NCBI RefSeq assembly: GCF_001425825.1
Contig: NZ_LMDM01000018.1
Location: forward strand, 1 to 32,816
Length of the DNA: 32,816 nucleotides
Source of the DNA: Rhizobacter sp. Root1238
Lineage (GTDB): Bacteria; Pseudomonadota; Gammaproteobacteria; Burkholderiales; Burkholderiaceae_C
Direction: 5' to 3'
In this document: one piece after another, positions 9,148 to 32,636 of the stretch
How positions within the stretch are numbered: the stretch's first letter is position 1
How the letters are laid out: every line of letters begins with the position of its first letter
Translations under genes and position numbers: made by a program
Notes under the pieces: generated by a model
Seen by the model: only the letters and a program-made list of their open reading frames with translations
Databases searched by the model: none
Told to the model about the DNA's origin: nothing

Positions 9148-9171
9148 CGGGCCGCCGAAGCTCGGGCCCGC

Positions 9172-14759: not shown

Positions 14760-14774
14760 GGCGGCCTCCGCGGA

Positions 14775-15800: not shown

Positions 15801-16342
<542 letters not shown>

Positions 16343-16346
<4 letters not shown>

Positions 16347-18799
16347 GGGGCCTCCACTCTCGGCTTGAACGTCACGTAAACGCCTGCGGCGAACAGCAGC
16401 AGGATCAGTCCGTACAGCAGGTAATTCTGCTCGCGCCAGTGCTGCAGCGCCGGGTCGCAGCTGAACACGACGAAGGCGAGCGCCAGTGTCGCGAGCGCGC
16501 CGGCCCACAGCATCAGCAGGTAGCGCCGGCCGATGCGCCGCACGCGGCAGTTCCATGCGTACAGCGCGATGCCGAGGCACTCCGCCAGCACCAGCGCCTC
16601 GAACAGCAGGCGCAGCGGCAGCCGGTTCGGGCACGCGAACTCGCACAGCCCGGCCAGCGCGCCGCGCGGCACCGTGTAGTTGTGCGCCAGCAGGCCGCTG
16701 ACGGTCTCGCCGCTGCCGAGTCCGGTGGTCGGCAGCGGCCACAAGCCGATGCCGCCGTAGGTCCACTTGATGTAGGCCAGGTCGCGGTCCAGCTGGTCGC
16801 GCTCCGGCGGGGCCAGCAGCACCGGCTTGTCGCCGCGCTGGTGGAACTCGATCGGCACCACGCTCTCGAGGAAGGCGATGCGGCGGTGCCCGGCCAGGTT
16901 CGGCGTGGCGTCGATCTGCGCGCGCAGCGCCATCGTGCTGGCGCCGGTCGGCTCGCTCAGCAGCACCAGGAAGTCGACCGTCAGGTCGGTGGTGCCGCGG
17001 TAGCGCACCTTGGCGCCCTCTTCGACGCCCTTGCTGCTGCGCCGCGGCTCGGCGCTTTCGAGCACGTCCATCAGGTCCGAGAAGTTGTAGGCGCCGGTGT
17101 CGCCCAGCAGGTGGTCGGGCACGACGATGTTGGCCTGGTAGCTGCGGCCCGACGCCTGCATCTCGGCCACCAGCCGCTGCAGGAACAGCTTCAGGAAGCG
17201 CGCGAAGGCCTTCTGCTGCGGCCCCTCGGTCGGCGAATCCTCGAAGAACACGGTGATGCCGTCGTACACGTAGGCCGATTCGCGCCACTGCGGCAGCAGC
17301 AGCCCGTCGAAGCGCGACTGCAGGTCGGTGTGGTGCGTGTCGGCCAGCACCACCGCATTGCGTGCCGCGTTGCGCGCGACCGCATCGGCCTGCGCCTCGG
17401 GCAGTGCCAGCAGCGACGCCCAATCGCGCCGGTACAGCACCAGGTCGACGCGCGTGCCGTGGCGCCGCGTCTCGCGCGCGAAGCCGCCCGACTGGCCGTC
17501 CCATCCCGGCGGCAGCACCCAGTTGCCGCTGTCGCCCAGCACCACGCCCATGTACTCGAGGCGGGTGAACAGGCTGAAGTCGACCGCCAGCGGTGCCTCG
17601 GTCGCGAGCCAGTACGGCACGAAGCCGATCACCTCGTTGTCGGTGCGCTGCGGCGTGCAGCCGCAGCCGGCACCGGTCAGGCGCAGCGGTTTCACGTCGG
17701 TGAACGGATGCCGCTTCTCGGCCACCTTGACGATGTCGTCGCGCAGCGCCGCCGGCAGCAGGTCGTCGTAGAACTCGCGCAGGCTCAGGCCGGTGGCCGC
17801 GGGCTTGCGCGATGGGGCCGATGCGGGCGCCGGCGCGGGTTGCGGCGGGCAACGGGTGTCGACGCTCAGCTGCTTCTTCAGCGCCATCTCGTTCACATGC
17901 ACGCGGTAGTAGTCGCAGCGGCTCTGCTCCAGCGCATCGACGAACAGCGCGCGCGTCGGGTACTCCACGTCGGTCAGCGGCAGCAGCACGGCCTGCAGTT
18001 GCTCGGCGCTCGGCACCACCGGCGCAGGGTCGCCGGGGGCCACCGCCGCGGGCGGCGCCGGGCCGTCGGCCGGCACCGGCCCGGTCTCCGGGGCCGGCAC
18101 CAGCCCCGGGGCGGGCGGTGCCGCCTCGGGCACCAGGCCGGCCTGGTCGGCCGGTGTCAGCTTGTAGGTCGCGGGCTGGCCGGCGCGGGTGTTCGCGGTG
18201 GCCTCGGCATCGGCGGTTCCGAGCGTCGTCATCGCACGCGGTGCCGCCGGCACCGACGCGGCCGATGCCGCCGCGGCCGGCTTGCTCGCGGCGGTGTAGA
18301 CGTTCAGCACATAGGCCTGTTGTGCCGCGCGCGGCGGCGATTCGGCGTCCTGCACGCCGAGCACGAAGCGGAAGCTGCCGTTCTCGGCCGGCAGGCCGCC
18401 GAGCCGGCCGTCTTCGGTCAGCACCAGCCCCGGTGGCAGCTTGCCGTCGACCGTGAAGCGGTACGGCGGCGTGCCGCCCTTCACGACCTCGCGCGGGCCG
18501 TAGGGCGCGCCGCGGCGTGCCGACGGCAACGTGACGGTCTTGTAGACCAGGCGCATGTCGATCGCCGACGCCGCCGGCCACGCGGCCAGCGGGACCATCG
18601 CGGTGTCGGGCGCGGTGTGGGGCGCGGTGTGGGGCGCGCCAGCAGGCGCTGACGCAGGCGCCGCCGGCGGCACCGTCGCGGCGCGCAACCCGAGGCTCGC
18701 GGCCATCACCAGCACCGCACCGGCCAGCGCGATGCGCAGCCGCCGGCAGCGCGCGCACGGTGCGGCGCGTGGGAAGGCTTGATCTCGATGCGTGTCCAT
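16343..18799 (-). CDS. eCIS-operon membrane protein with Ig-like (He_PIG) and GH18-like domains
   Basis: 818 residues. N-terminal TM or signal anchor about 21-42; Pro/Ala-rich spacer with an HTAP repeat; a putative Ig domain (about 95-170: GGTPPYRFTVDGKLPPGLVL, GRLGGLPAENGSFRFVL); another Pro-rich spacer; a helical part with ALFVDALEQSRCDYYRVH; and a domain about 385-690 that resembles glycoside hydrolase family 18 (NEVIGFVPYW at its start, YDGITVFFED at 512-521). GH18 enzymes need DxxDxDxE; here only the first Asp and the Glu remain, so catalysis is doubtful. Three C-terminal helices end it (about 730-750, 760-780, 793-811). Cys pairs in the central domain imply an extracytoplasmic location. 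It lies 5 nt after the ATPase gene. Likely an anchor or wall-contact part of the eCIS; this is inference. Confidence 0.8.
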
Positions 18800-18804
18800 G
18801 GCAG

Positions 18805-20172
18805 CTAGGCAGTCCGCCCTTCCTTGCGCAGTTCCTTCGCGACGCCACGCCGCAGGTCCGACGCATCGATGCGCTCGCGGCCCGCCTGCAGCGCACCGAG
18901 CGCGCCGAAGCGCACGACGTTCGCGATCGCCCCGCCCGACAGCTCGTGCCGCTCGGCGAGCCCGGGCAGGTCGACGTCGTCGGCCAGCCGGCCGGTGTGG
19001 CGCACCATGCCCTCCCACAGCAGGCGCCGCTGCTCGGCGTCCGGCATCGGGAAGTGCACCAGCGACTGGAAGCGCCGCGCGAACGCATCGTCGATGTTGG
19101 CCTTCAGGTTGGTCGCGAGGATCACCGTGCCGGGGAAGTCCTCGACCCGCTGCAGCAGGTACGACACCTCCTGGTTCGCATAGCGGTCGTTCGAGCTGGA
19201 GGTCGCGGTCCGTTTGCCGAACAGCGCATCGGCCTCGTCGAAGAACAGGATCCACTGCCGGCTCTGCGCCTGGTCGAACACCTGGGCCAGGTTCTTCTCG
19301 GTCTCGCCGATGAACTTCGAGACCACCATCGACAGGTCGATGCGGTAGACGTCGCTGCCGACCTCCTGGCCGATCAGCGTCGCGGTCAGCGTCTTGCCGG
19401 TGCCGGGCGGGCCGTAGAACAGGCTGCGGTAGCCGGGCTTCAGCGCCTTGTCGAGCCGCCAGTCGCGCAGCAGCCGCTGGCCGTGGCGGAACCAGGTGAC
19501 GATCGCCTGCACCTCGTCCATCACCTCGGCGTCGAGCACCAGGTCGCTCCAGCCCAGGCGCGTGGTGATCAGCCGCGCCGGGAAGCCGATGCCGTAGTCG
19601 GGCTTGCGGGCCTCGCCGGTCGCGAGCCGCTCCAGCGCGTCGCCGCTCACGTGCAGCGCAGCGCTCAGCCACGGCTCGCCGGGGCCGTCGTGCTGCAGCC
19701 GCAACAGGCCGTGGCGGCGCAGCGGACGCTCTTCGTCGAGCAGGCGCTGCAGCGCGAAACGGCGCGCCAGGTCTTCGCCGGCGACCAGGAAGGCCGCGGT
19801 CTCGCACGTCGGCAGGAAGCCGCCGTGCGAGCGCCCCTTCCAGCCGCCGAATTCGCTGAAGCCGCGGTCGAGGTTGCGGTTGCGCACGAACAGCATGTCG
19901 AGCAGCTGCGGCTTCAGGTGCGGCGCCAGCGCGAGCGCGAGCACCAGCCGCTCGTCATGGCCGAGGCCGGCGGTATGCACCAGCTCGGCATAGTCGCCGT
20001 CGTCGCGCGCCAGCGCGGGCGCGGCGATCGACGCGGCCGCCGGCGCATCGGCCTGGCCGAAATGCAGGCCGATGCGCGCCTGCAGCACGCGCTCCAGCCA
20101 CGCCAGCTCGCGCCCGACCACGCGCGCGTTCAGCTCGACGCGCAGCTGCCGCAGGTCAGCGCCACTCGACAT
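18805..20172 (-). CDS. eCIS AAA+ ATPase (Afp15-like)
   Basis: 455 residues. An N-terminal helical region (1-240) precedes one AAA+ module: Walker A GPPGTGKT (254-261), Walker B ILFFDEADALFGKR (308-321), sensor-1 Asn in ILATNLK (about 355), and arginine-finger DDAFARRF (361-368). The sequence is close to the ATPases encoded in Afp/PVC-type loci, which act in particle assembly or cargo loading inside the producer. The ATG is set by a near-perfect Shine-Dalgarno (AAGGAGGT) 5 nt upstream and lies inside the tape-measure gene (17-nt overlap), so it may be translated at its own higher rate. The position right after the tape-measure gene is the canonical eCIS order. Confidence 0.95.
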   Translation of the reverse strand: MSSGADLRQLRVELNARVVGRELAWLERVLQARIGLHFGQADAPAAASIAAPALARDDGDYAELVHTAGLGHDERLVLALALAPHLKPQLLDMLFVRNRNLDRGFSEFGGWKGRSHGGFLPTCETAAFLVAGEDLARRFALQRLLDEERPLRRHGLLRLQHDGPGEPWLSAALHVSGDALERLATGEARKPDYGIGFPARLITTRLGWSDLVLDAEVMDEVQAIVTWFRHGQRLLRDWRLDKALKPGYRSLFYGPPGTGKTLTATLIGQEVGSDVYRIDLSMVVSKFIGETEKNLAQVFDQAQSRQWILFFDEADALFGKRTATSSSNDRYANQEVSYLLQRVEDFPGTVILATNLKANIDDAFARRFQSLVHFPMPDAEQRRLLWEGMVRHTGRLADDVDLPGLAERHELSGGAIANVVRFGALGALQAGRERIDASDLRRGVAKELRKEGRTA

Positions 20173-21958
20173 GCAGCACCTCCTTCATCCACGGGTGGCG
20201 CACCGTCGCATACCCCCACGGCAGCTGGTCGATCAGCATGTCGAACGGCCGCGGCGCGACATGCAGCTGCCAGTGCTCGTCGGCATGCTGCAGCCGGCCG
20301 TCGCGCTGCAGGAAGGTCTCGCGCAACCCGGCCACCGAGGTGCTGCCCAGCACCTTCCAGTGCAGGATCATCGCGGCCAGCAGCCCGTCGACCGCGCTGC
20401 GCTCGGCATCGGTCGGCTGCAGCGCGCGCATCACCGGCGCCGCGAGGTCGATGCCGCACAGCAGCTTGTTCAGCACCAGCGCCGGCTCGGGCGCCGCGGC
20501 CTCGCCGGTGGCCACCAGCTGCAGCAGCAGCGCGGCGCGCTCGGCGGCTTCGGGGCCGGCGAAGGCGCGTTCGTCGGACAGGCCCAGCATCATGAAGAGC
20601 CGCGGCAGGTAGGGCGCGGCCAGCACCAGGCCGGCATTGCCGACCGGCAGCAGCTCGACCGGCGGCGGCGGCGCATCGACCTCGGGCTCCCGCACCGCCC
20701 CGGCGACCGGCTCGTGCGGCGGCTCGACCGCTGCACGCCGCCCGAAGCCCAGCGCGGCGACCGCCGAGGCCAGCGCGGCGACCGCCGAGGCCAGCACCGA
20801 CGTGGCCGCGCGCACCACCCGCTCGAACCACGACGGCGGCAGCGCCGGCACGCTGGCCGCGGCGACCTGCGAGCGCACATGGTCGACGTAGCGCCACGCG
20901 TCGAACGGCGCCGCGCCGCGTTGCCAGGCATGCTGCAGCGTCGCCTGCCACAGCAGTTGCCGGCGCTCGGCGCGTTCGTCGGCGGACGCCGGCCCCCCCG
21001 ACGCCACCGCCGCGATCCAGTCGTCGACCGCCGCCGTCACGCCGCTGCCCAGCCACAGCCCGAGCACCTGGTGCAGCAACGCCGCCGGCAGCGCGCGCAC
21101 GATGCGCTGGCGCAACGATGCGCGGTCGCCCAGCCGCTGCAGCGTGGCCTTCAGCCAGTCGCGGTCGTCCCTCAGCAGCGGCGCCCAGGCGGACGCGACC
21201 GACTGCAGCGGATCGCTGCTGGCTGAATACGCCGAATCCGCTTCGAGCGCCGCCAGCAGCTGCGCGCGCAGCAGCGCCCGCCCGGTCGCCTGCGGCGCGG
21301 CCGCATGGGCGAGCGCCTGTCCGAGCACCGCCTCCCACAGCGCCGCGGTGCCGAGCGCCGCGGCCTTCAGCAGCCGGTCGGCCGCGGCCGGTTCGCCGGG
21401 CATCAGCGCATGCACCAGCGCGCCCAGCCAGCCGGCGTCGAACTGCGTCACCAGCCGGCGCAGCAGGCGCGGCCGGTCGTCCATCGCGCGCAGCGCGTCG
21501 GCCAGCGCGGCCGCGCCGTGGCGCAGCACCTCGGCGGCGAGCGTGGCCGGGTCTTCGCCACGGCCCTGCCACGGCAGGTGCCCGTGCCGCAGGAAATGCA
21601 GCAAGGCCTCGAGCCGCGCCTGCGGCAGGCTGCGCCGCACGCCGCCGGGGCCGGTGCGCGCCGCGGCCGCTCCGCCCGGCCCGCGCAGGTCGGCCAGCCG
21701 CTCCTGCAGCCGCTCGCGCAGCCGCTCGGCCCAGGTCTCCTCCAGGCCGTCGAGCGCGACCTCGCCGAGGTCGATCGCCAGCTCGTCGATGCGCCACACC
21801 TCGTCAGGGCCGCAGGCGGCGTCGAACAGCGCATCGATGATGCGCAGCGCCGGGCCTTGCACGAAGGCGGCGAGCCGCGCCTCGGCCTCAGGCACCTCCA
21901 GCCCGCCGCCGAAGCCGACCTCGACGTGCAGGTGCTCGACCAGGTGGGCGTCAGGCAT
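20156..21958 (-). CDS. eCIS tape-measure protein (CIS_TMP family, Afp14-like)
   Basis: 600 residues. The N-terminus (HLVEHLHVEVGFGGGLEVPE, WRIDELAIDLGEVALDGLEE, then WAERLRERLQERLADL) and the C-terminus (NAGLVLAAPYLPRLFMMLGL, LVLNKLLCGIDLAAPVM, TSVAGLRETFLQRDGRL, then DMLIDQLPWGYATV) are the conserved ends of eCIS tape-measure proteins. The family usually runs longer, so the middle is short and Ala/Leu-rich. A perfect 21-bp tandem duplication (20750-20791) adds SAVAALA twice. The product should set tube/sheath length during assembly. I chose the ATG at 21958 over an upstream frame extension because it overlaps the previous stop by 8 nt and starts the conserved domain. Confidence 0.9.
   Translation of the reverse strand: MPDAHLVEHLHVEVGFGGGLEVPEAEARLAAFVQGPALRIIDALFDAACGPDEVWRIDELAIDLGEVALDGLEETWAERLRERLQERLADLRGPGGAAAARTGPGGVRRSLPQARLEALLHFLRHGHLPWQGRGEDPATLAAEVLRHGAAALADALRAMDDRPRLLRRLVTQFDAGWLGALVHALMPGEPAAADRLLKAAALGTAALWEAVLGQALAHAAAPQATGRALLRAQLLAALEADSAYSASSDPLQSVASAWAPLLRDDRDWLKATLQRLGDRASLRQRIVRALPAALLHQVLGLWLGSGVTAAVDDWIAAVASGGPASADERAERRQLLWQATLQHAWQRGAAPFDAWRYVDHVRSQVAAASVPALPPSWFERVVRAATSVLASAVAALASAVAALGFGRRAAVEPPHEPVAGAVREPEVDAPPPPVELLPVGNAGLVLAAPYLPRLFMMLGLSDERAFAGPEAAERAALLLQLVATGEAAAPEPALVLNKLLCGIDLAAPVMRALQPTDAERSAVDGLLAAMILHWKVLGSTSVAGLRETFLQRDGRLQHADEHWQLHVAPRPFDMLIDQLPWGYATVRHPWMKEVLHVEWR
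20178..20185 (-). promoter_or_regulatory. Strong Shine-Dalgarno for the AAA+ ATPase gene
   Basis: AAGGAGGT lies 5 nt before the ATG at 20172, inside the end of the tape-measure gene. It is the best ribosome site in the eCIS operon and fixes this start. Confidence 0.8.
20750..20791. repeat. Two perfect 21-bp tandem repeats inside the tape-measure gene
   Basis: The unit cagcgcggcgaccgccgagg+c occurs twice in direct succession and begins a third time. It encodes repeated SAVAALA-type heptads and keeps the frame, so the copy number could vary without inactivating the protein. Confidence 0.85.
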
Positions 21959-24500
21959 GGCCTTGCAGCCAGGGCTCGTCGCCCTCGCCGTCCCGAGCGT
22001 CGCCATCGTCGTCGCCGGGCTGGCGCAGGCATTGGATGACGCGGCACGCCGCTTCGTCGGCCAGTGCTGCCAGCTGCGCGTTGCCGGGCGCGGCCGCGAG
22101 GTTCCTGCGCGCCGTCAGCCACGGCACCCAGCACCCCTCGAAGCGCTGCATCGCATCGACCTCCAGCCACAGGCAGCGCAGCGACAGGTGGGCCGGGCAG
22201 TTGATGCGCAGCGTCTCCTGCGCGAAGCGGCGGAACGCCGGCTGCCGGGTGCGCGCCGTCCAGCCCGGCATCAGCACGCTGATGCGCAGTGCATGGAAAT
22301 CGGCCGGCAGCTCCAGCGCCGCATGCGCGCGGCCGCCGTCGGCGAGCGGCCGCAGCAGCACGTGCTCGACGACGTGCAGGCCTTCGCTCTCCTGGTGCAG
22401 GTGCAGCAGGAAGAGCCGCAGGCTGCCGGCGGCGCGGCGCGCGCTCGCGGCATCGGCGTGTTCGCCGAGGTCCCACCAGCGGCCGTCGTCGTCGGGGCCG
22501 AGCAGCAGCCGGTGCGGTGCGTCGGGCGAGGCATCGCCGCCGGCCAGCAGCCGGTACCGGTCGCGCCACAGCCCGGCGTGGAACACGCCCGCCGGCAGCG
22601 CGCCGCGCAGCACGGCCATGCGCTGCAGGTCGGCCTGCAGCTCGGCGCGGGTCGGCGGCGCCGTCGCCTGGCCGGCCGCGCCGGCGGCCTGCGCCTGCTG
22701 CGGCGCGAGCTGCAGCGACGCATGCTGCGGCAGCGGTTGCGGCACCAGCCGCAGCCGCTGCTGCTGCAGCGCCTTCGTCAGCGGCCGCGGGTGGCCGATG
22801 CGCAGGCCGAGCAGCAGCGCCACGCGCCGCTGCAGCCCGCTGCCGTTGTCCGGCGTGTCCCAGGCGTCGCGGCCCAGGTCGAAGCCGCCGGCGCGGTCGC
22901 GCGTCAGGCCGACCACGTCGCGCAGCCAGGCCGCCTTGTTCTCCAGCAGCAGCGATTCCAGCTCCTGCGGCGAATGGTGGCCGCAGAACTGGCGCATCGA
23001 GCTCTGCGCATAGGTGTCGCCGTACAGCGCCAGCAGGTGGTCGAGCGCGCGGCTCTTGCGCCGCGCCGAGCGGTCGAACGGCGGGTACATCGCCCGCTCG
23101 ACCTGCGCGGCCGGCGCGAGCAGCAGCCGCTCGACGCCGGGCACGCTGTCGGGCCCGATCATCTGCGACCACAGCGTCTGCCGCGAGCCGCCGTTCACCG
23201 AGAACAGCTCGCGCAGGTGCTGCACCTGGGCCAGGCCCTGCGCGATCACCTGCTCCATCATCAGCAGGTAGGCCTGCAGCTGCTGCGCACGGGCGCGCGC
23301 CTGCGGCGGCGCCGAGCGCGGCACGCCATGCCGGCCGACGCCGTAGATGGCCGGCAGCAGCCGCTGCACCGAGTGGTAGCGCTGCAGGTCGCGGTGCTGG
23401 CCGCGCGGCAGCGCGGCGGCGGCGCGGCCGGCCTGGTCGGCCTGCTGGCGCGAGCGGTTCGAGCGGCCGGCGGCGTGCAGGTCGTCGAGCTTGCGGCGCA
23501 GGTCGTCGGGCGTCACCGCGACCCGGTTGCCGCGCCGCGTGACCGCGATGGTGGCCGGCGCGCCGTCGGTGGGCATCGCGAGCCGCAGCGCCCAGCCGTC
23601 GCCGCGCCACGCGACCGAGCCGTTGCTGGCCACGTCGTTGGCCGGCCGCAGTTCCGACAGGCGCGCGAGCGCGACCCCCGGCACCGCCTGCACCACCGCG
23701 GCCAGGTCCGACAGGAACAGCCGCTGCGTGCCGTCCTGGCCCTCGGGCAGGTCGTCGATGAAGCCGTGCTTCAACGCCGGGCCGGTGTAGATGTCCTCCA
23801 GCGACGCGCCGGCGCGCCGGCGCTCGTCGAGGCTGCGGCAGGTGGCGGCGCGGGCGATGAAGCGGTCGCAGCGGTCGTACACCTCGGCCAGCACGTCGGC
23901 GGCGTCGCGCGGGCCGTCGATCTCGATCTGCGCATGCAGCTCGCAGGCCACGTCGCGCACGCAGGTCACGACCAGGTCGAGGTCTTCGCCGAGGTTGCGC
24001 TGCGCATGGAAGGCCTCGCGCGCGGCCGCGATGCGCTGCGCCGTGCCGTCGGCCGCGCCCTGCGACAGCTGCAGCACCAGGCGCAGCACGCCGTCGGCGC
24101 GCGGCTGCAGCGTCGCGTCGTCGAGGCCGGGCACGGCGTCGAGCAGCACGCGGCGCATGTCGGCGGGAGTGGTCGCGCGGCACGGGAAGATGTCGGCCGG
24201 CGGGTGCAGCGACAGCCCCGCGTAGTCGATCGTGCCGTCGGGCCCGGTCAGGTGGTCGGCGACCGGGAAATCGGCGCGGTACACCAGGTCGGTCAGCGCG
24301 TAGCAGAGCTGTTCCAGCAGCGTGATGCCGGGGTCGTGCAGGTTGTGGTCGGTCCAGGTCTGGCCGCTGACGGCCTGCAGCCATTCGAGGCCCTGCTCGC
24401 GCAGCCGCGCGAAGCTCGCCTCGCCGCGCTCCCTGGCGCGCGGCCGGGCGGGTCCGGGCTGGGGCTGGGGTTGAGGTTGGGGCAATGGGTTCGAGATCAT
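21951..24500 (-). CDS. eCIS baseplate wedge protein (Afp12-like)
   Basis: 849 residues. After a PQ-repeat start (MISNPLPQPQPQPQPGP) the first 100 residues include TWTDHNLHDPGITLLEQLCY and ALTDLVYRADFPVADHL, typical of eCIS baseplate components. The central block YHSVQRLLPAIYGVGRHGVP, then AQQLQAYLLMMEQVIAQGLA and LRELFSVNG is the conserved signature of Afp12-type proteins. The C-terminal half contains VEHVLLRPLADG and conserved Trp/Cys positions, and ends in an acidic tail (DDDGDARDGEGDEPW). It should form the wedge ring around the spike together with the baseplate-J-like protein. The ATG overlaps the preceding gene as ATGA and is the only sensible start. Confidence 0.88.
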   Translation of the reverse strand: MISNPLPQPQPQPQPGPARPRARERGEASFARLREQGLEWLQAVSGQTWTDHNLHDPGITLLEQLCYALTDLVYRADFPVADHLTGPDGTIDYAGLSLHPPADIFPCRATTPADMRRVLLDAVPGLDDATLQPRADGVLRLVLQLSQGAADGTAQRIAAAREAFHAQRNLGEDLDLVVTCVRDVACELHAQIEIDGPRDAADVLAEVYDRCDRFIARAATCRSLDERRRAGASLEDIYTGPALKHGFIDDLPEGQDGTQRLFLSDLAAVVQAVPGVALARLSELRPANDVASNGSVAWRGDGWALRLAMPTDGAPATIAVTRRGNRVAVTPDDLRRKLDDLHAAGRSNRSRQQADQAGRAAAALPRGQHRDLQRYHSVQRLLPAIYGVGRHGVPRSAPPQARARAQQLQAYLLMMEQVIAQGLAQVQHLRELFSVNGGSRQTLWSQMIGPDSVPGVERLLLAPAAQVERAMYPPFDRSARRKSRALDHLLALYGDTYAQSSMRQFCGHHSPQELESLLLENKAAWLRDVVGLTRDRAGGFDLGRDAWDTPDNGSGLQRRVALLLGLRIGHPRPLTKALQQQRLRLVPQPLPQHASLQLAPQQAQAAGAAGQATAPPTRAELQADLQRMAVLRGALPAGVFHAGLWRDRYRLLAGGDASPDAPHRLLLGPDDDGRWWDLGEHADAASARRAAGSLRLFLLHLHQESEGLHVVEHVLLRPLADGGRAHAALELPADFHALRISVLMPGWTARTRQPAFRRFAQETLRINCPAHLSLRCLWLEVDAMQRFEGCWVPWLTARRNLAAAPGNAQLAALADEAACRVIQCLRQPGDDDGDARDGEGDEPWLQGHA
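24457..24486. repeat. Imperfect 6-bp tandem repeat encoding Pro-Gln
   Basis: Hexamers of the ggctgg/ggttgg type repeat about five times and encode the PQPQPQPQ stretch at residues 6-13 of the Afp12-like protein. The unit is a multiple of three, so changes in number would not shift the frame. Confidence 0.7.
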
Positions 24501-25291
24501 GGCGCCGAGCCTTCCATCGTCTCGTCGAACCACAGCCGCGTCAGCGTCGCGCGGATGCTCACGCCGCTGCCGTAGTCGCACTTCGAGCGCACCTGCAGCC
24601 GGTAGCTGGCATCGCGCCCGCTGCTGCCGTCCCAGCGCAGTTCGAGCTTGTCGCAGCGCCGGCCATACCAGGCGTTGTCGCAGCGGATGCGCTTGCGCCG
24701 CGACAGCAGGTCCAGCCAGCCCGCCGCCGGGTTGTAGGTGTTCATCGCGATCGCATGCATCAGCGCGAAGCGGCCGCCGCCCGGGTGCCCGGCACCGGCC
24801 ATCACCTCGAAGGCCTGGCAGCCGGCGAGCGGGCCGGTCAGGTCGTGCCATTCGCCGTCGGCCAGCGCCGGCGCCAGGCCCGGCCAGCGGCACGAGCCGA
24901 CGCGGCCCTGCGACGCGACCACGCCGGCCACGTCGAGCGCCTGGCTCGGCTCGGCCGTGCCGATGCCCACGCGCTCGCGCGGATCGAGCGCCAGCACCGG
25001 CGCGCGGCCGCGCGACGCGGTGACGCCGGCGCGGTGGAACAGCAGCTGGTCGCGGTCGCCGCCATGGCTGATCGACCACAGCGCGGTGCGCGCGCTCTGC
25101 TCGCGGTAGAAGCTGACCAGCGCGTCGTAGCCGGCCGGCGTCGACACCTCGATGCCGTTCTCGGCCGACTTGCGGAAGCCCTCGTCGCTCATGTTGAGCA
25201 TCGAGTCGATCAGGTCGCCGAAGTGGTCGCGCGTCGGCAGCTTCCCTTCGTCGAAGAAGTGGCGCAGCGTCTCTCGGTTGCGGATCGTCAT
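24497..25291 (-). CDS. eCIS-conserved small fibre-like protein
   Basis: 264 residues. The N-terminus MTIRNRETLRHFFDEGKLPT, then HFGDLIDSMLNMSDEGF recurs in eCIS loci by my recollection. The middle carries ERVGIGTAEPSQALDVAGVV, the VGIGT-P--LDV motif typical of trimeric phage tail-fibre shafts. The C-terminal domain (about 150-264: DGEWHDLTGPLAGCQAFEVM, RFALMHAIAMN, RCDKLELRW, SYRLQVRSKCDYG, then IRATLTRLWFD) looks like a compact beta-rich knob. A role as a short fibre or baseplate decoration that contacts the target is likely but inferred; enzymatic activity is not indicated. It is joined on both sides by ATGA overlaps between two baseplate genes, which favours a structural subunit made in defined ratio. 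Confidence 0.75.
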   Translation of the reverse strand: MTIRNRETLRHFFDEGKLPTRDHFGDLIDSMLNMSDEGFRKSAENGIEVSTPAGYDALVSFYREQSARTALWSISHGGDRDQLLFHRAGVTASRGRAPVLALDPRERVGIGTAEPSQALDVAGVVASQGRVGSCRWPGLAPALADGEWHDLTGPLAGCQAFEVMAGAGHPGGGRFALMHAIAMNTYNPAAGWLDLLSRRKRIRCDNAWYGRRCDKLELRWDGSSGRDASYRLQVRSKCDYGSGVSIRATLTRLWFDETMEGSAP

Positions 25292-28200
25292 GCGCCGCCT
25301 CCGTCGAGCGTGCCGATCACGAAGGTGCTGCCGACCGACAGCCGCGCGATGCCCGTCGGCTGCGGCGCCGGGTCGGGAAACGCGGTGGCCGCGCTGACGA
25401 TGTGCGTGGCCATCGGCAGCGCCAGGCTCCACGGCGCGAGCGAGGTCGCATGGCCGCGGCCTTCGGTGTTGGCGCCGGGAGGGGCCGGCGCGCGGCGCGC
25501 GGTGTCGCCCAGCGTGTAGACGCCGTCGTCGCTGCAGGCCACGTGCAGCAGCGACAGCTGGGTCACGTAGTCGACGCAGTCGAGCGCGCGCAGCCGGGCC
25601 TCGAGGTCTTCGCCGCGCACGACCCAGTCGAACTCGGCGCCGCAGCCGTCGTCGAACCACGGCGACAGCGTCTCGACCACGCTGCGGTTGATGCGCTGCA
25701 GCGACGCGCCTTCATGCGCGCCGCGCACCAGCCCGACGGTGCAGCGCAGCTGCAGCCGGTCGTAGGCCGGGTTGCGCACGACGATCTTCGCGAACGGCGA
25801 CGCGCGCTCGCGCAGGTGCTCGGCCATGCGGCTCAGCTGGATCGCGTTGAAACGCGGCGCGGCGCAGGCGAAGTCGGGGTCGTTGCGCGGCACCTGCGGC
25901 ACGACGACCACCACCACCTGCCCGGCCTGCGGGCGCGGCTGGCCGGTCATCGCGATCTCGTCGCCGGACAGGCAGCGCACCTTGAACACCTCGGGGAAGC
26001 GGGCCAGCAGCAGCCGCTCCGCATCCCAGGCGACGCAGGCCCGCTGCTTGTGCCGCAGCCGCTCGCCGGCACGGGTGTACAGCAGGCCGGCGTCTTCGGC
26101 GCTGCGCAGCCCGAACGACGGGCCGACCTGCTGCACGCCGGCCAGCCCCGGCACCGACGCCAGCGACCGCGTGATGCGGCCGTGCGGCACGATTGCCAGC
26201 GGCGCCCCTTGCGACTCCGGCAGCACGCGCCGCGCGCGCAGCGCATGCGCCTGCACCGACTGCAGCGCCGCGAAACCCGCGAAGCCTTCGGCGGCCGAAG
26301 CGCGCAGCCAGTACAGGCCGGCCGGCATCACCTGGTTGTCGCGCGTCAGGTCGACCGGCAGGTCGAGCGTGACGATGCCCGAGGTCAGGAAACCCTCGGT
26401 GCTGTCGGCCAGCACGCGCGCCGGAGGCAGCGCGCGCCAGTGGTCGTCGGCCAGCGTTGCCCAGCGCACGCGCGCGCGCACTGCGTCGGGCCGGGTCGCG
26501 TCGGCGGCCGATTCGCGCAGCGAGAACAGCAGCGTCAGCGTGCCGCCCGGGTCGCTGGCCGACAGGCCGATGTAGAGGTTGCCGTCGTCGTCGGCGCGGG
26601 CCAGCAGCCCGTGGCCCGAACCGGCGGCGGCCGAATGCAGCGTCTCGACGCCGAACGGGTGCAGGTGCAGCAGGCGCTCGACGTCCGCATTCGCGTGCGT
26701 CTCCCCCTGCCCTGCCGCCTGCATCGCCGCGGGCCGGATCACGCCGCTGGCCTCGTAGCTCAGCGTCAGCCGTTCGATCAGCGGCGTGTACGGCGGGTTC
26801 GGCAGCGGCTGGCGCCAGCGAGCACGCAGGTTCTTGCGGGCGTTCGCGGTGACGGTGTCGGCCAGCACCATCGGGTACGCGGCATGGCCGAACGCGCCGC
26901 GCGGGTGGGTGAGGTGGAGCCGGACCAGCCCGTTGCGCGGCATCGCGCCGTCCCATTCGGCCGGGTCGCCGGCGCGGCTGTGCTTGCGCACCGAACCGGG
27001 GTCGACCTCGATGTCCAGCATCGGCTGCAGGCAGCCGGCGGCGTCCAGCGGCGCGAACAGCGGCTGCTGCGCCGACAGCCCGGCGCACGGCTGCCACAGC
27101 CCGTCGCGCAGGATGGCCAGCGCGGCGCGGAAATCGCCGTCGCGCTGCTCCACCGGGTAGCCGCGGTAGTGCGTCGCGAAGCCGCCGGCATCCGCCGGCA
27201 GGCCGCCCCATTCGAGCTGCATCGACAGGCGCTGGATGTTCTTGCACGCGATCTCGCGCGCGCCGACCACCAGGTACGACGACAGCGTCGGCAGCGGCCC
27301 GAATGGGTGGAAGGCCTTGGTCGGGTCGAGCCGGCCGAGGTTGTTGTGCAGCACCACGTCGCGCACGCCGCTCGCGCGCACGTTCAGCCGCGCCTCGGCC
27401 AGCGGCAGGTCGGCCAGCAGCGAGTACGGGTAGAGCCGCCCCTGCGTGCCCAGCTCGATGCGCAGCATCGGCAGCCGCGTGCCCCAGTCGGCGCCATGCA
27501 GCAGCGGGTCGCAGCCGACGATGGCCGGCGCCTCGGCGCGCAGCCGCAGCGTGATCGCGACGCCGCCGTCGGCCGCGCGGTCGATGTCGGAATCGGTCAC
27601 CTCCAGCCAGCCGTGGGCCGCGCTCAGGTGCAGCTTCAGCAGGCCGTGGAACAGCTGCTCGAACACCAGCTCGCGCTGCGGCGCCTGCGTGCCGGCCAGC
27701 AGCGTCAGCGGGTCGCCCAGGCTGCCGGGTTGCGGCAGCCGCTCGCGCAGCACGCGGCGCGCCGCGAGCCGCAGCCGGCGCAGCTGCGCGTCGGTGAAAT
27801 CGGCGCGCCCGCCGAGCAGCCACTGGCTGAGCAGCCGGCCGAAGGCCTCGCGCAGCGTGCGTGCATCGGTCGCGAAGGTGACCTCGTCGACGCGCAGGTC
27901 CAGCGCCTTCTCGTCGTCGACCGGCGTCGCGGCCCCGGCCACGCTGAGTTCGAGCCGGACCTGCCGCTCGCCTTCGCGCAGCAGCAGCAAGGGCGACACG
28001 ATGGCCAGGCCGAGCCGCGCGTCGTCGGCACCGCGGCCGCCGCCGAACAGCGGCCACGCGCTGCTGCCGTCGGGCACCAGGCGGGCCGCCTTCGCACGGG
28101 TCACGAAGCCGAACTCGCGCTCCGGCGAGATCAGCGCGTCGCGCTCCAGCCGCAACGTGCACAGCGCCGCGACGCGCGCATCGGTCACCACCAGCGGCGC

Positions 28201-29112
28201 CGCGCTGTGGAAGCGCAGCGGCTGGCCGGCCGCGTCCTTGCCGGCGTCGAACAGCGTGTCCTGCGGCACGTTCAGCAGGCGTTCGCCGCGCGCATCGCGG
28301 GCGCAGGCCAGGTGCACCTCGTCGGCCTCGGGCCCGGCCGGGCCGAAGCCGAGGCAGTCGCGGTAGTAGAAGTCGACATGCCGCGCGGTGAAGCGATTGA
28401 CCTCGCGCTGCGCCGATTCGCAGACCTTCAGGAATGCGATCAGCAGCCCGACCGCCGCCTCGTGGGTGCCGGTGTGCAGCGTGGCCGGCAGCAGCTCGCG
28501 CGCCAGGCCCTGCAGCCCGTCGATCGCGCTCAGGAACGCGAAGTAGCGCTCGCGCAGCAGCTCGCGCGGGCTGCGGCCGGCCGCCAGCGTCGCGAGCAGC
28601 GGCCGGTCGCTGTCCCAGATGGCGTCGAGCCGGGCTTGCGCATGGGCCACCGCACGGCCTTGCCAGCGGTGCTGCCCGAAGCTGCCGTGCACCCAGCGCA
28701 GGTCTTCGCCGAGCTGCTGGTCGACGAGCTGGCGGATGCGCTCGCGGAACGCATGCGCCTGCGGCTCGCCGCGGCCGTCGAGCGACTTGAACCACAGGTC
28801 GATCCACTGCGCCAGGTCGACCACCTGCTGCGCGAGCCGCGCCAACGGCGCCGAGTCGACATCGGCGAGGAACGCGTCCTGCAGCGCCCCCAGGTCGATG
28901 CTCGCGATGCGCGCCAGCACCATCGTGATGTCGCTGGCGAACATCGCGCGCCAGTCGCCGGCCTCGCGGTTGTCGAGGTCGATGAAGCGCAGCTGCCGCG
29001 CGAGCGTCGCGGTCATCGCGACACGCTGCTCGAACGGCAACTCGTCGACGCGGAAATACCCGTCGGCCAAGGCGGCCGGGAAACGCTCGCGCTGCGAGGT
29101 GCCACGGCTCAT
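25288..29112 (-). CDS. eCIS giant baseplate protein (baseplate-J/gp6-like, Afp11-like)
   Basis: 1274 residues. The N-terminal region has FRVDELPFEQRVAMTATLAR, then QLRFIDLD and FKVCES-type helices with EVNRFTARHVDFYYRDCLGF, the recurring eCIS Afp11 signature. The middle is a long beta-rich part (HPFGPLPTLSSYLVVGAREI, QRLSMQLEWGGLP). The C-terminal portion has the baseplate-J layout: RNPAYDRLQLRCTVGLVRGA, INRSVVETLSPWFDDGCGAE, LEARLRALDCVDYVTQLSLL. Gp6-like proteins build the wedge ring that changes conformation when the sheath fires. ATG overlaps the gp25-like gene stop as ATGA, and its own stop overlaps the fibre-like gene in the same way. The length fits the eCIS family. Confidence 0.92.
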   Translation of the reverse strand: MSRGTSQRERFPAALADGYFRVDELPFEQRVAMTATLARQLRFIDLDNREAGDWRAMFASDITMVLARIASIDLGALQDAFLADVDSAPLARLAQQVVDLAQWIDLWFKSLDGRGEPQAHAFRERIRQLVDQQLGEDLRWVHGSFGQHRWQGRAVAHAQARLDAIWDSDRPLLATLAAGRSPRELLRERYFAFLSAIDGLQGLARELLPATLHTGTHEAAVGLLIAFLKVCESAQREVNRFTARHVDFYYRDCLGFGPAGPEADEVHLACARDARGERLLNVPQDTLFDAGKDAAGQPLRFHSAAPLVVTDARVAALCTLRLERDALISPEREFGFVTRAKAARLVPDGSSAWPLFGGGRGADDARLGLAIVSPLLLLREGERQVRLELSVAGAATPVDDEKALDLRVDEVTFATDARTLREAFGRLLSQWLLGGRADFTDAQLRRLRLAARRVLRERLPQPGSLGDPLTLLAGTQAPQRELVFEQLFHGLLKLHLSAAHGWLEVTDSDIDRAADGGVAITLRLRAEAPAIVGCDPLLHGADWGTRLPMLRIELGTQGRLYPYSLLADLPLAEARLNVRASGVRDVVLHNNLGRLDPTKAFHPFGPLPTLSSYLVVGAREIACKNIQRLSMQLEWGGLPADAGGFATHYRGYPVEQRDGDFRAALAILRDGLWQPCAGLSAQQPLFAPLDAAGCLQPMLDIEVDPGSVRKHSRAGDPAEWDGAMPRNGLVRLHLTHPRGAFGHAAYPMVLADTVTANARKNLRARWRQPLPNPPYTPLIERLTLSYEASGVIRPAAMQAAGQGETHANADVERLLHLHPFGVETLHSAAAGSGHGLLARADDDGNLYIGLSASDPGGTLTLLFSLRESAADATRPDAVRARVRWATLADDHWRALPPARVLADSTEGFLTSGIVTLDLPVDLTRDNQVMPAGLYWLRASAAEGFAGFAALQSVQAHALRARRVLPESQGAPLAIVPHGRITRSLASVPGLAGVQQVGPSFGLRSAEDAGLLYTRAGERLRHKQRACVAWDAERLLLARFPEVFKVRCLSGDEIAMTGQPRPQAGQVVVVVVPQVPRNDPDFACAAPRFNAIQLSRMAEHLRERASPFAKIVVRNPAYDRLQLRCTVGLVRGAHEGASLQRINRSVVETLSPWFDDGCGAEFDWVVRGEDLEARLRALDCVDYVTQLSLLHVACSDDGVYTLGDTARRAPAPPGANTEGRGHATSLAPWSLALPMATHIVSAATAFPDPAPQPTGIARLSVGSTFVIGTLDGGGA

Positions 29113-29531
29113 TGCGGCCCCTCCTGCAGCGCGCCGTCGCGCAGGTACAGCGGGTACACCATGTTGCCGCGGGCGTTGGTGCTGCGGATCGTGTAGTCCA
29201 GCTGCAGCCGCAGCAGGCCGTCGTACAGGTCGGTGGTGTCGATGTCGACCTGCTCCAGCGTGACGCGCTGCTCGAAGAACAGCACCGCCTTCTCGACCAG
29301 GCTGCGGATCTCGGTCAGCGTGCTTTCGGTGATGTTCTCGAACACCATGCGCCGCAGGCCGCAGCCGTAGGTCGGGTGCATCACGCGCTCGCCGGGTGCG
29401 GTGGACAGCAGGATGCGCAGGCTCTCGCGCACGTCCTGGTCTTCCGACACCGTCACCGCATGCAGCGTGCGGCCGTCGAAGGCTGGCGGGAAGGCCCAGC
29501 CGGTGCCGAGGAAGCGCTTGTCGATGCCCAT
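29109..29531 (-). CDS. gp25-like baseplate wedge protein (Afp9-like)
   Basis: 140 residues. The start MGIDKRFLGTGWAFPPAF is characteristic of gp25/IraD-fold eCIS proteins. The core SEDQDVRESLRILLSTAPGE, RVMHPTYGCGLRRMVFENI, then LVEKAVLFFEQRVTLEQV includes the conserved EPR-like turn (here APGERVM) and the Y/F-G-GL motif. It should nucleate sheath assembly on the baseplate. I prefer the ATG at 29531, which has GGCAGG upstream and matches family starts, over a GTG at 29552 that overlaps the PAAR stop. It ends in an ATGA overlap with the baseplate-J-like gene. Confidence 0.93.
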   Translation of the reverse strand: MGIDKRFLGTGWAFPPAFDGRTLHAVTVSEDQDVRESLRILLSTAPGERVMHPTYGCGLRRMVFENITESTLTEIRSLVEKAVLFFEQRVTLEQVDIDTTDLYDGLLRLQLDYTIRSTNARGNMVYPLYLRDGALQEGPQ

Positions 29532-29544
29532 GGGTGCCTGCCGC

Positions 29545-29844
29545 TCAGCCACCGATCAGCACGGTGGGCCAGCCCATCGCGATGCTGCCGCCGTGCGCGG
29601 TCGGGTCGCCGATGCGCGCGGCCGGCCGGCTGCCGATCAGCACCGTCGTCGAGCCCTGGATGATGGTGTCGGGCGGGCCGACGCAGACCGCGCTGTCGCC
29701 GAGCACCGCGGCCGGCAGGCTGCCGATCAGCACGGTGGGCACGCCCGGGCCGACCACCGGTCCGCCGACGTGCGGGATCGGCGGCAGGCCCGGCGTGACC
29801 ATCGGGCACACGTGCATGTCGGTGAGGCGGGCGGCGGGCGGCAT
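29545..29844 (-). CDS. PAAR-repeat spike tip protein (Afp10-like)
   Basis: 99 residues, all PAAR domain. PPAARLTDMHVCPMV, the GGPVVGPGVPTVLIGSLPAA pattern, AVLGDSAVCVGPPDTI, and a second VLIGSRPAARIGDPTAHGG. His11, Cys13, His25 and a late Cys/His are the likely zinc ligands at the cone tip. The protein should cap the VgrG-like spike and pierce the target envelope. It has no C-terminal extension, so it carries no toxin itself. It lies before, not after, the gp25-like gene, which differs from the classical Afp order. The ATG at 29844 follows the spike-gene stop by 26 nt. Confidence 0.95.
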   Translation of the reverse strand: MPPAARLTDMHVCPMVTPGLPPIPHVGGPVVGPGVPTVLIGSLPAAVLGDSAVCVGPPDTIIQGSTTVLIGSRPAARIGDPTAHGGSIAMGWPTVLIGG

Positions 29845-29870: not shown

Positions 29871-31667
29871 TCAATTGATCATCACCATCGCGCCCTTGAC
29901 CACCGTCTGGCCGGCGGCCGAGAGTTCGGCGCTCGCATTGCCCTTCGCGGTGAAGCCGACCTGGGCCTGCGCGGCGATGTTCAGTCCGGCGAGCTTGACG
30001 TCGGCCTTGGACGTGACGCTGATGGCGCCGACCGCATCGAGCGTGATCGTGCCCTTGGCGGTGATCTTGATGTCGGCCGGGCTGTCGAGCGTGATGCCGC
30101 CGGGCGCGAGTTCGACCTTGTTGCCGTTCTGGTCCTGCAGCAGGATCGACTGGTCCTTGTCGCTCAGCACGATCTTGTTGTTGCCCGGCGTGGTGATGGT
30201 GATGACCTTGTCGGCCTCGTTGAACTCGAGCTTCGACTTGCAGCGGGTGACGATGGCCTTGATGTCGTTGGCCGCTTCGAGCGGGTACGGCGGGGCCTGC
30301 TTGCTGCTGTACAGGCTGCCGAGCACGACCGGGTGCGACGGGTCGTCGGCGAAGTAGCCGAGCACGACCTCGTCGCCGACCTCCGGCAGGAAGAACGCGC
30401 CGAAGGCGTTGCTGGCATGGAACTGCACCAGCCGCGCCCAGATGCCTTCGGTGGCCGCCTGCAGCATCGGCAGCTTGACCTGCACGCGCTGCTCGCCGGC
30501 GGGGTCGGCGTCGAGCTTCATCACGATGCCGACCTGCAGGCCGTGCACGCCGGGCAGCAGGCCGGCGCCGGGCGGCGCGATCACGTCGGCGCGCTCGACG
30601 AACCAGTCGGGCGCGAGGCCGAACTCGGCTTCGGTGACCCAGTTGCCGTCGGCGATCTCGTGGTGCAGCCCGGTGACCAGCAGCTTGCCGCTGAAACGCG
30701 CTCCGACGCCACTCAGCTCGATCAGGCCGCCGACCTTCGCGAGCGCCGAGCCCTGGAAGCTCAGGCGCCCGCGCAGCCGTGCGAGGCCCGACTTCAGCTG
30801 CTGCGCCTTGGCCCAGCTCGTCAGCGCGGCGAGCGGCTGCGGCGCGCCGGATTGCAGCCGCCAGGTCGGCAGGCCGATCACGCCGGCGAGCGTCGCCGAA
30901 TCGAGGTCGCCCTGCGCCGGCAGCGTGACCGGTGCGCTCGCGCTGCCTTCGAGCGCCGCCTGGCCCTTGATGTCCCACGAGAAGGCCTGGGCGCTGGCGA
31001 ACTGGCTGCGCGCGTCGAGGTCGGCCTGGAATTCGATCAGTTCGTCGCCGTACGCGACCTTCAGCGCGGCTTCGGCATCGACTTCGGGCGCCTTGACGGC
31101 AAGCTTGCCGTCTGTTGCGACCACCAGCAGGCCGTTGACCTCGGCGCGCGACAGCATGAAGTCCCAGTCGCTGCAGTAGTGCTGGACGAGTTCGGTGTGG
31201 CTGAGCTCGGTGGCGTCGACGTCGATCGCCAGGCCGTGCTCGCCGGCCAGCGCCTCGATGACGGCGCTGTCGGTCTGGTCGATGAAATTGGCATTGCGGC
31301 GGCCGACCGTCATCAGCACGGCCTTGTCGCGGCATTCGACGATCAGGCGTGCGTCGTTGTCGCCGCGCACCTGCAGCCCATGGCGAACGATGAGGCCTTC
31401 GAACAGCACGGCCGTGGGGTCGGACTGGTAGCCGGCCTTGATCGACAGCAGCACGCCGGGCTTGAAATGCGCGGAGTCGCTGAGCGGGAAGGTGCGGCTG
31501 GGGATGTCGCCATCGGCGAGTTCGATGCGGGCCGACGGCACGCTGTTGACGCCGCGCCGCACCGACACCGAGATGACCTCGACGGTCTCGTCGAGCGCGA
31601 CGCCATCGGCGCTGAGCAACAGGCGGACGACGCCATCCGTGTCGTCGAGGGGGGAGACGGCAGGCAC
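29871..31667 (-). CDS. VgrG-like spike protein (Afp8-like)
   Basis: 598 residues. A gp27-like N-terminal part (about 1-370: FKPGVLLSIKAGYQSDPTAV, LVQHYCSDWDFMLSRAEVNG, TGLHHEIADGNWVTEAEF) precedes a gp5 OB-fold (about 385-470: GVHGLQVGIVMKLDADPAGE, RVQVKLPM, FFLPEVGDEVVLGYFADDPS, HPVVLGSLYS). A C-terminal beta-helix follows (about 480-598: VITITTPGNNKIVLSDKDQS, LAPGGITLDSPADIKITAKG). It should trimerise as the central spike under the inner tube. The GTG start lies 3 nt after the LysM-gene stop with GAGG overlapping that stop, so the two are coupled. No effector extension follows the beta-helix. Confidence 0.95.
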   Translation of the reverse strand: MPAVSPLDDTDGVVRLLLSADGVALDETVEVISVSVRRGVNSVPSARIELADGDIPSRTFPLSDSAHFKPGVLLSIKAGYQSDPTAVLFEGLIVRHGLQVRGDNDARLIVECRDKAVLMTVGRRNANFIDQTDSAVIEALAGEHGLAIDVDATELSHTELVQHYCSDWDFMLSRAEVNGLLVVATDGKLAVKAPEVDAEAALKVAYGDELIEFQADLDARSQFASAQAFSWDIKGQAALEGSASAPVTLPAQGDLDSATLAGVIGLPTWRLQSGAPQPLAALTSWAKAQQLKSGLARLRGRLSFQGSALAKVGGLIELSGVGARFSGKLLVTGLHHEIADGNWVTEAEFGLAPDWFVERADVIAPPGAGLLPGVHGLQVGIVMKLDADPAGEQRVQVKLPMLQAATEGIWARLVQFHASNAFGAFFLPEVGDEVVLGYFADDPSHPVVLGSLYSSKQAPPYPLEAANDIKAIVTRCKSKLEFNEADKVITITTPGNNKIVLSDKDQSILLQDQNGNKVELAPGGITLDSPADIKITAKGTITLDAVGAISVTSKADVKLAGLNIAAQAQVGFTAKGNASAELSAAGQTVVKGAMVMIN

Positions 31668-32363: not shown

Positions 32364-32388
32364 GGTGTGGTGCTCTGGCTCGGGGCGC

Positions 32389-32636
32389 GGGGGCGGTGCG
32401 GGCGGGGACAGGCTGGGGGACTCATGCCGGGGCGGTCGGCCCTGGCGGGCCGACTCCACGAAGAAGCTCGGCTTCGGGGGTGCATCGGCAAACTCCCTCC
32501 GCTCACTGCGTTCGCTGTGGTCAAACAGTGCCGATGAGTCAGTCCACGAAGCGTGCTGCGCACGCCACCCCCGAAGCCGACCTTCTTCGTCGCCCCAGAA
32601 ATCGCCCCCCAGCCTGTCCCCGCCCGCACCGCCCCC
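32389..32636. repeat. Perfect 31-bp inverted repeat upstream of the LysM gene
   Basis: Arms 32389-32419 and 32606-32636 are exact reverse complements (G-rich arm GGGGGCGGTGCGGGCGGGGA and on to GGCTGGGGG). They enclose about 186 nt that contain a second, inner inverted repeat. In RNA this would be a very stable long-range hairpin ending 26 nt before the LysM start codon. Confidence 0.85.
32461..32587. repeat. Inner 20-bp inverted repeat (19/20)
   Basis: AAGAAGCTCGGCTTCGGGGG at 32461-32480 pairs with CCCCCGAAGCCGACCTTCTT at 32568-32587 with one mismatch. It is nested within the 31-bp repeat, and the two pairs share nearly the same centre. Confidence 0.8.

What the first reader, a model, noticed from the sequence alone, without database searches (positions are those of the whole stretch)
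16343..18799. Membrane-anchored Ig/GH18-like protein with a broken catalytic motif inside an eCIS operon
The sequence shows an N-terminal hydrophobic anchor, a He_PIG Ig-like domain, a GH18-like barrel and three C-terminal helices, translated from within the eCIS operon between the ATPase and the DUF4157 gene. The GH18 signature is reduced to YDGITVFFED: the first Asp and the Glu are kept but the two inner Asp are Thr and Phe. A pseudo-enzyme could bind glycan (chitin, peptidoglycan or GlcNAc polymers) and tether particles or the firing complex to the envelope. That would make this a cell-attached rather than freely released eCIS. I know of no described eCIS component with this architecture; this is the best candidate here for something new.
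Basis: partly seen in the sequence, partly recalled or inferred. Interest (0 to 1): 0.7.

Follow-up and report, generated by a model that had tools for sequence, protein, structure and literature searches.

The report
Membrane pseudo-chitinase of an injection machine
One lineage of phage-tail-like bacterial injection machines carries its own membrane protein with a dead chitinase-like domain, which may hold the machine to the cell envelope rather than letting it drift free.

Summary
The gene is real: minus strand, 18799 to 16343, 818 aa, between the eCIS AAA ATPase and the DUF4157 gene of a Rhizobacter-type genome. It has an N-terminal hydrophobic segment, an Ig-like domain, a GH18-related domain and three C-terminal transmembrane helices. 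GH18 kinship rests on sequence; no fold could be computed. Copies in 14 genomes (window included) all lie in eCIS loci: 13 directly after the ATPase gene, one after the tape measure gene. Their eCIS form one side of a Cis12 tree. Two relatives carry a peptidoglycan-binding domain at the N-terminus. Predicted topology puts these parts in the periplasm. Best reading (inferred): an inner-membrane dock tying the particle to membrane and wall. A full-length relative of one copy already has a solved structure (PDB 9r9a chain B, 'Uncharacterized protein'), probably from the system of SalCis12; no paper on it in the library searched. A real, apparently undescribed part of a known machine; attachment unproven.

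The parts
16343..18799 (-). The gene: 818-aa eCIS membrane protein with Ig-like and GH18-like domains and three C-terminal TM helices
18677..18733 (-). N-terminal hydrophobic segment, residues 23-41 (signal anchor or signal peptide), preceded by six Arg
18299..18538 (-). Ig-like (He_PIG-type) domain, about residues 88-167
16730..17632 (-). GH18-like domain, about residues 390-690, preceded by a conserved Cys-Gly-Cys (379-381)
17237..17266 (-). Degenerate GH18 motif YDGITVFFED (residues 512-521)
16367..16609 (-). Three C-terminal TM helices (731-749, 761-779, 793-811); loop with five Arg between the first two
15801..16346 (-). DUF4157 (eCIS_core) protein, start overlaps the stop of the gene
18805..20172 (-). 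AAA ATPase of the eCIS, directly upstream
20156..22006 (-). CIS tape measure protein (CIS_TMP)
21951..24500 (-). Cis12-type baseplate protein; best PDB match SalCis12
24497..25291 (-). Short fibre-like protein, 264 aa, no TM helix; profile matches the first 40 residues of Anabaena All3316 (Cis13) weakly
25288..29112 (-). Cis11-type baseplate protein
29109..29531 (-). gp25 baseplate wedge protein
29545..29844 (-). PAAR tip protein
29871..31667 (-). VgrG-type spike
31671..32459 (-). CIS tube protein with a sub-threshold LysM match

Best explanation
The protein is a conserved component of one lineage of Pseudomonadota contractile injection systems. Shown by sequence: gene, gene order, conservation in the lineage, degenerate GH18 motif, hydrophobic segments. 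Inferred from positive charges, peptidoglycan-binding domains in two relatives and the N-terminal hydrophobic segment: the Ig and GH18-like parts lie in the periplasm, while an Arg-rich loop and the C-terminus face the cytoplasm. Inferred mechanism: it is an inner-membrane dock. Its cytoplasmic loops or helices hold the baseplate side of the particle (perhaps through the short fibre), and its catalytically dead GH18-like domain, together with the Ig-like or peptidoglycan-binding domain, holds or senses the cell wall. The particle would thus be kept at, and perhaps triggered from, the envelope of the producing cell.
For: 14 of 14 genomes with the gene carry it in an eCIS locus, 13 directly after the ATPase gene and 1 (L059) directly after the tape measure gene. 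In the two draws searched for both, 9 of 9 genomes with the gene have CIS_TMP over its cut-off. The 13 gene-bearing rows are one side of a branch of a 17-row Cis12 tree, support 95/99. Motif DG[IV]T in 14 of 14; Glu place E 3, D 7, P 2, R 1, K 1. PF01471 over its cut-off in relatives L057 and L127. TM pattern and charges fit the positive-inside rule. dN/dS 0.25 overall, 0.21 in the GH18-like part against the L003 copy. The short fibre shows no TM helix in the gene-bearing loci scanned, whereas Anabaena Cis13, whose N-terminus it weakly resembles (E 0.022), carries its own (PMC8894136, passages). No long fibre gene was seen between Cis11 and tape measure in the 13 gene-bearing loci that cover that place. 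A relative has a solved structure, probably of the SalCis12 system.
Against: No fold, localisation or interaction was measured. Whether 9r9a shows the protein bound to a particle is unknown to me; its title and other chains were not visible. 5 of the 14 genomes with CIS_TMP over cut-off in the two draws lack the gene, so it is not general to eCIS. The window copy has no recognisable peptidoglycan-binding domain; the domain passes its cut-off in 2 of 11 copies scanned singly. The Cis13 resemblance is weak. One paper warns that predicting the mode of action of a CIS from relatedness can be unreliable, and shows free cytoplasmic particles in Roseiflexus (PMC12998442, passages); another describes eCIS as released on lysis (PMC8213781, passages).
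Confidence: 0.5

Rival explanations
1. It is the receptor or trigger of firing rather than a tether: particles float in the cytoplasm and meet this membrane protein only on stress, as proposed for CisA in Streptomyces.
For: CisA is a membrane protein with a periplasmic substrate-binding-like domain, encoded just downstream of baseplate genes and required for function and firing (PMC12237407, title and passages). Sensor-type genes lie nearby: SBP_bac_3 and MCP in the window, a dCache protein in L128.
Against: Architecture unlike CisA as described; wall-binding domains in relatives suit a holder as well. The SBP and MCP neighbours were found in L003 but not in the stretches L002, L025 and L026.
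Confidence: 0.2
2. It is an assembly or envelope-passage factor that acts transiently (places the baseplate or helps passage through the wall) and is not part of the finished machine.
For: Directly follows the AAA ATPase gene in 13 of 14 loci; close gene spacing in the window.
Against: Residues needed for cleavage are lost; a relative has been solved structurally, though in what context is unknown.
Confidence: 0.13
3. It is an active or altered glycoside hydrolase.
For: The window copy keeps Glu at the catalytic place; the third Asp of the signature is kept in 3 of 14 copies (L027, L059, L131).
Against: Glu absent in 11 of 14 copies, the second Asp is Thr in 14 of 14, and no copy has all four residues.
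Confidence: 0.05
4. It is an injected effector.
For: Next to DUF4157, a domain tied to eCIS toxins (PMC8213781, section 10); the same paper reports an eCIS-associated toxin predicted to be a chitinase (EAT3, Dickeya; passages).
Against: Conserved place and core architecture across the lineage, unlike cargo genes; N-terminal export-type segment and three TM helices.
Confidence: 0.05

Closest known systems
PDB 9r9a chain B (864 aa, 'Uncharacterized protein'), probably of the SalCis12 system (9rce)
   Same: Matches the L059 copy over residues 40-886 (E 9.9e-183) and the window copy over 370-800 (E 5.1e-11); motif DGITLDID; C-terminal hydrophobic part shared
   Different: The match to the window copy does not include its N-terminal half with the Ig-like domain; species, title and partners of 9r9a were not visible
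CisA of Streptomyces coelicolor
   Same: Membrane protein encoded in a CIS cluster and required for firing (PMC12237407, passages)
   Different: Single-pass, periplasmic domain of substrate-binding type; no sequence comparison was made
Cis13 of the Anabaena thylakoid CIS (All3316)
   Same: Anchors a CIS in a membrane (PMC8894136, passages)
   Different: A fibre with a TM helix in the same chain; here the weak Cis13-like N-terminus is in the neighbouring 264-aa protein and the TM helices are in this one
Glycoside hydrolase family 18 (PF00704)
   Same: Sequence kinship at the start of the domain and around the motif
   Different: Signature broken; extra N-terminal module and TM helices
EAT3, predicted chitinase toxin of an eCIS (Dickeya)
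   Same: Chitinase-type prediction in an eCIS locus (PMC8213781, passages)
   Different: Described as a toxin; not compared by sequence here

Membership tests
GH18 glycoside hydrolase | PF00704 match over the curated cut-off | tested here: not met
   No match for the window protein; best relative L131 22.7 bits against 29.6
GH18 glycoside hydrolase | Catalytic signature DxxDxDxE (signature recalled) | tested here: not met
   First Asp 14 of 14; second Asp is Thr in 14 of 14; third Asp kept in 3 of 14; Glu in 3 of 14
GH18 glycoside hydrolase | Common descent of the domain with GH18 | tested here: met
   For: PF00704 E 9.3e-5 in L131 over the motif; hhalign above all 60 shuffles in three sets, one barely; L105, a PF00704 protein over cut-off, scores 24.4 bits with the family profile against at most 1.4 in 300 shuffles. 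Limits: the two matches in L105 overlap by only about 25 residues; the family profile finds nothing significant in the 21-domain GH18 panel (best E 2.1); hhalign probability at most 32%
GH18 glycoside hydrolase | Alpha/beta barrel fold | not testable with these tools
   Structure prediction switched off
eCIS component | Gene found in eCIS loci and not elsewhere | tested here: met
   14 of 14 genomes; the other matches covered only the Ig-like part and linker, or in G022 only residues 374-471; all one search matches are among the 14
eCIS component | Physically part of or bound to the particle | not testable with these tools
   9r9a may show it; contents beyond chain B not visible
CisA | Single TM helix with a C-terminal periplasmic substrate-binding-like domain | tested here: not met
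   Three C-terminal hydrophobic segments after the GH18-like part; CisA as described in PMC12237407 (passages)
Cis13-type anchor | Baseplate-binding N-terminus and TM helix in one chain | tested here: not met
   The Cis13 match lies in the neighbouring 264-aa protein, E 0.022, which has no TM helix
Ig-like He_PIG domain | PF05345 match over cut-off | tested here: inconclusive
   Best 23.7 bits against 24 in L025; window copy none in Pfam but similar to annotated Ig-domain genes

The most novel reading that the evidence does not exclude
A lineage of Pseudomonadota eCIS is not extracellular at all: it is held in the inner membrane and cell wall of the living producer by a dedicated pseudo-chitinase dock, an independent solution to membrane anchoring beside Cis13 in cyanobacteria and the T6SS membrane complex, and the dead GH18 domain reads the state of the wall to gate firing.
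Probability: 0.3. Interest if true: 0.8.

Novelty: new variant of a known kind. Interest (0 to 1): 0.55.

Why it matters
Whether a contractile injection system is released or stays on the cell decides how it works, and relatedness alone predicts it poorly (PMC12998442, passages). This gene is a simple sequence marker for one lineage that may stay attached. It is easily missed by a Pfam-based survey: 9 of 11 copies scanned singly match no Pfam model over its cut-off. It makes the question testable by one deletion and tomography, and gives a genomic context to a deposited but uncharacterised structure.

Tried and rejected
Pfam and NCBIfam on the window protein: nothing informative. Plasmid and phage collections: Ig-domain hits or none (the listing shows 20 of 27 records); viral contigs: none. 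A shared C-terminal module between this protein and the other membrane proteins of some loci: tested, no significant match. YaaH-like GH18 as a specially close source of the domain: hhalign 22.6, barely above shuffles. Global hhalign against GH18 gave no useful score, and a HMMER search of the GH18 panel with the family profile gave nothing significant. PDB searches with neighbouring proteins showed 9rce chains but no further chain of 9r9a. Papers: 9R9A, SalCIS, 9RCE, SalCis12 and Sal-CIS gave nothing relevant; eCIS with chitinase, glycoside hydrolase, membrane-anchored, periplasm and Cis12, peptidoglycan-binding, Rhizobacter brought up no described component like this. Papers were seen as listings, or as passages for PMC8213781 (also section 10), PMC12237407, PMC8894136, PMC12210884, PMC10598620 and PMC12998442, and as outline for PMC13314943; none was read whole. 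The library holds no preprints and few subscription papers.

Full report
Setting. The window is the first 32.8 kb of a 104.7-kb contig of a 6.5-Mb genome. On the minus strand the window carries most of an eCIS: tube protein with a sub-threshold LysM match, VgrG, PAAR, gp25, Cis11, a 264-aa fibre-like protein, Cis12, tape measure, AAA ATPase, the gene in question and DUF4157. Just beyond the window lie two tube proteins, sheath, an unknown 281-aa protein and the Pvc16-type cap, so the locus looks complete.

The gene. It runs from an ATG at 18799 to a stop ending at 16343, 818 aa, five bases after the ATPase stop and overlapping the DUF4157 start by four. Hydrophobic segments lie at 23-41, 731-749, 761-779 and 793-811. 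Six Lys or Arg precede the first segment and none follow it in the next 20 residues; the loop between the second and third has five, that between the third and fourth one, the C-terminus two. By the positive-inside rule (established knowledge) this puts residues 42-730 in the periplasm, although the 20 residues before the second segment also hold three. The first segment may be a cleaved signal peptide; this was not tested. Against the L003 copy dN/dS is 0.25 overall, 0.14 in the Ig-like part, 0.21 in the GH18-like part and 0.39 in the linker, so the GH18-like part is constrained although its motif is degenerate.

GH18 kinship. The window protein matches no GH18 model. The evidence is indirect. 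Relative L131 matches PF00704 at 9.3e-5 over residues 233-321, below the curated cut-off; L025 at 0.086. A 374-aa protein of G022 (L105) passes the PF00704 cut-off, was hit by the window protein over residues 374-471 (E 8.3e-4), and scores 24.4 bits with the family profile against a best of 1.4 in 300 shuffles; but the family match covers its beginning and the PF00704 match the rest, with an overlap of only about 25 residues, so the bridge is partial. Profile-profile comparison with 21 GH18 domains puts DGITVFFED on the DGIDIDWE signature (E 5e-4, probability 32%). Scores exceed all 60 column shuffles for chitinase-like (34.7 against 22.0), L105-like (28.0 against 20.3) and, barely, YaaH-like sets (22.6 against 21.6). 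Against this, a plain HMMER search of the 21 GH18 domains with the family profile gave nothing significant (best E 2.1).

A lineage-wide pseudo-enzyme. In 14 copies (W, L002, L003, L025, L026, L027, L057, L058, L059, L127, L128, L129, L130, L131) the motif begins DG[IV]T in 14 of 14, so the second Asp of the recalled signature DxxDxDxE is always Thr. The third Asp is kept in 3 (L027, L059, L131). At the place of the catalytic Glu the residues are Glu in 3 (window, L002, L003), Asp in 7, Pro in 2, Arg in 1, Lys in 1. The solved relative 9r9a_B reads DGITLDID.

Distribution. The protein was sought in three overlapping draws of 60, 398 and 369 genomes. In the first, 13 of 60 matched: 6 over the GH18-TM part, 6 by the Ig-like part alone and 1 (G022) by residues 374-471 alone. 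In the second, 19 of 398 matched: 5 over the GH18 or TM part, 14 within query positions 49-284, that is the Ig-like part and linker. In the third, at a stricter limit, 7 of 369, all over the GH18-like part. Together 14 genomes carry the gene, the window's included. In 13 of 14 it follows the ATPase gene directly; in L059 it follows the tape measure gene directly and the ATPase lies apart on the other strand. DUF4157 lies within the fetched stretch in 11 of 14. CIS_TMP was found over its cut-off in 9 of 398 and 7 of 60 genomes (one more of the 398, G111, below cut-off), 14 different genomes; 9 carry the gene and 5 do not (G021, G212, G171, G190, G268). In the five stretches without it, five family members as queries found nothing below E 0.096; the G268 locus is a fragment. 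In these two draws no genome has the gene without CIS_TMP. In a Cis12 tree of 17 rows the 13 gene-bearing rows form one side of a branch, support 95/99; L130 and G268 had no Cis12 in the stretch, several rows have long branches, two of them meet, and 12 rows differ in composition, so the tree is suggestive, not firm.

Architecture across the lineage. PG_binding_1 passes its cut-off near the N-terminus of L057 and L127, with a weak PG_binding_3 hit in L130 (E 0.15); similar DG..GP.T stretches are visible by eye in L027 and L059. L131 has no recognisable N-terminal domain. The Rhizobacter copies carry the Ig-like domain instead. The GH18-like part and the three helices are thus the constant core, and the wall-facing N-terminus varies. 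The 264-aa fibre-like protein was found in 12 of 13 loci whose stretch covered its place (not in G123; L130 not covered), with no TM helix in those scanned. Its profile matches bd2133 (8ond, E 3e-5; a Bdellovibrio protein, recalled) and, weakly, the first 40 residues of Anabaena All3316, the Cis13 of the thylakoid CIS (E 0.022).

Known structure. The A1 profile finds one PDB sequence at E up to 1, 9r9a_B, 864 aa, 'Uncharacterized protein', two chains. The L059 copy matches it over residues 40-886 (E 9.9e-183), and the Cis12 of the same L059 locus matches 9rce_B, 'SalCis12', at 2.7e-194, the next best being 7.5e-35. I infer, without having seen either entry's title, that 9r9a_B is this component in the SalCis12 system. 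Neither name was found in the papers held. So a structure exists; its description was not available to me.

Published context. Membrane linkage of a CIS is known for the thylakoid CIS through Cis13 and Cis12 (PMC8894136, passages) and for Streptomyces through CisA (PMC12237407, passages). A Pfam survey of 1425 eCIS operons (PMC8213781, passages and section 10) names core and shell domains; a gene without a Pfam match would not show there (inference). That paper also lists a toxin from Rhizobacter sp. Root29 and a predicted chitinase toxin from Dickeya, so eCIS in this genus and chitinase-type eCIS genes are in print. The passages that my terms brought up in a review (PMC10598620), a metagenome survey (PMC12210884) and a hot-spring study (PMC12998442) mention nothing of this architecture.

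Judgement. The best mechanism, a membrane and wall dock, rests on gene order, predicted topology, wall-binding domains in two relatives and the lack of a long fibre gene; every step from there to attachment is inference. The trigger and assembly-factor rivals are open. The finding is a new variant of a known kind: a CIS-linked membrane protein unlike those described, in a lineage whose structural study seems to be under way elsewhere.

Noticed in passing
L128:3396-8208, L129:13602-18293, L130:5999-8152, L131:12960-14117, L058:12884-13981: Several loci with this gene carry further membrane proteins beside it: a ~700-aa protein with several TM helices (dCache/PDC sensor in L128, the only one scanned), a TPR protein in L128, and ~365-aa proteins of which two were scanned, with weak hits to ligand-gated ion channel families (E 0.02-0.03).
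   Followed up: partly
window 13218-15575: A periplasmic binding-protein-like gene (SBP_bac_3) and an MCP gene follow DUF4157; conserved in L003, not found in L002.
   Followed up: no
window 1439-10572: SpvB/FG-GAP-type and RHS-HINT genes lie downstream and resemble Tc/Rhs-type toxin parts; a published eCIS toxin (EAT1) is from Rhizobacter sp. Root29. Described only.
   Followed up: no
L024:5526-7551: Two response regulators and a histidine kinase upstream of the cap gene; one regulator carries GerE, the domain that Geller et al. report beside eCIS.
   Followed up: no
L025:10260-10640: In the G009 copy the signal-peptide-like N-terminus lies in a different frame from the rest: an apparent frameshift or sequencing error.
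   Followed up: partly
L024:4014-4859; L090: An unknown ~281-aa protein between cap and sheath is also labelled in 5 of 6 upstream stretches of gene-bearing loci. In the sixth, L090 (G050), genes upstream of gp25 are unrelated and no sheath, tube or VgrG was labelled, so that locus looks split.
   Followed up: no
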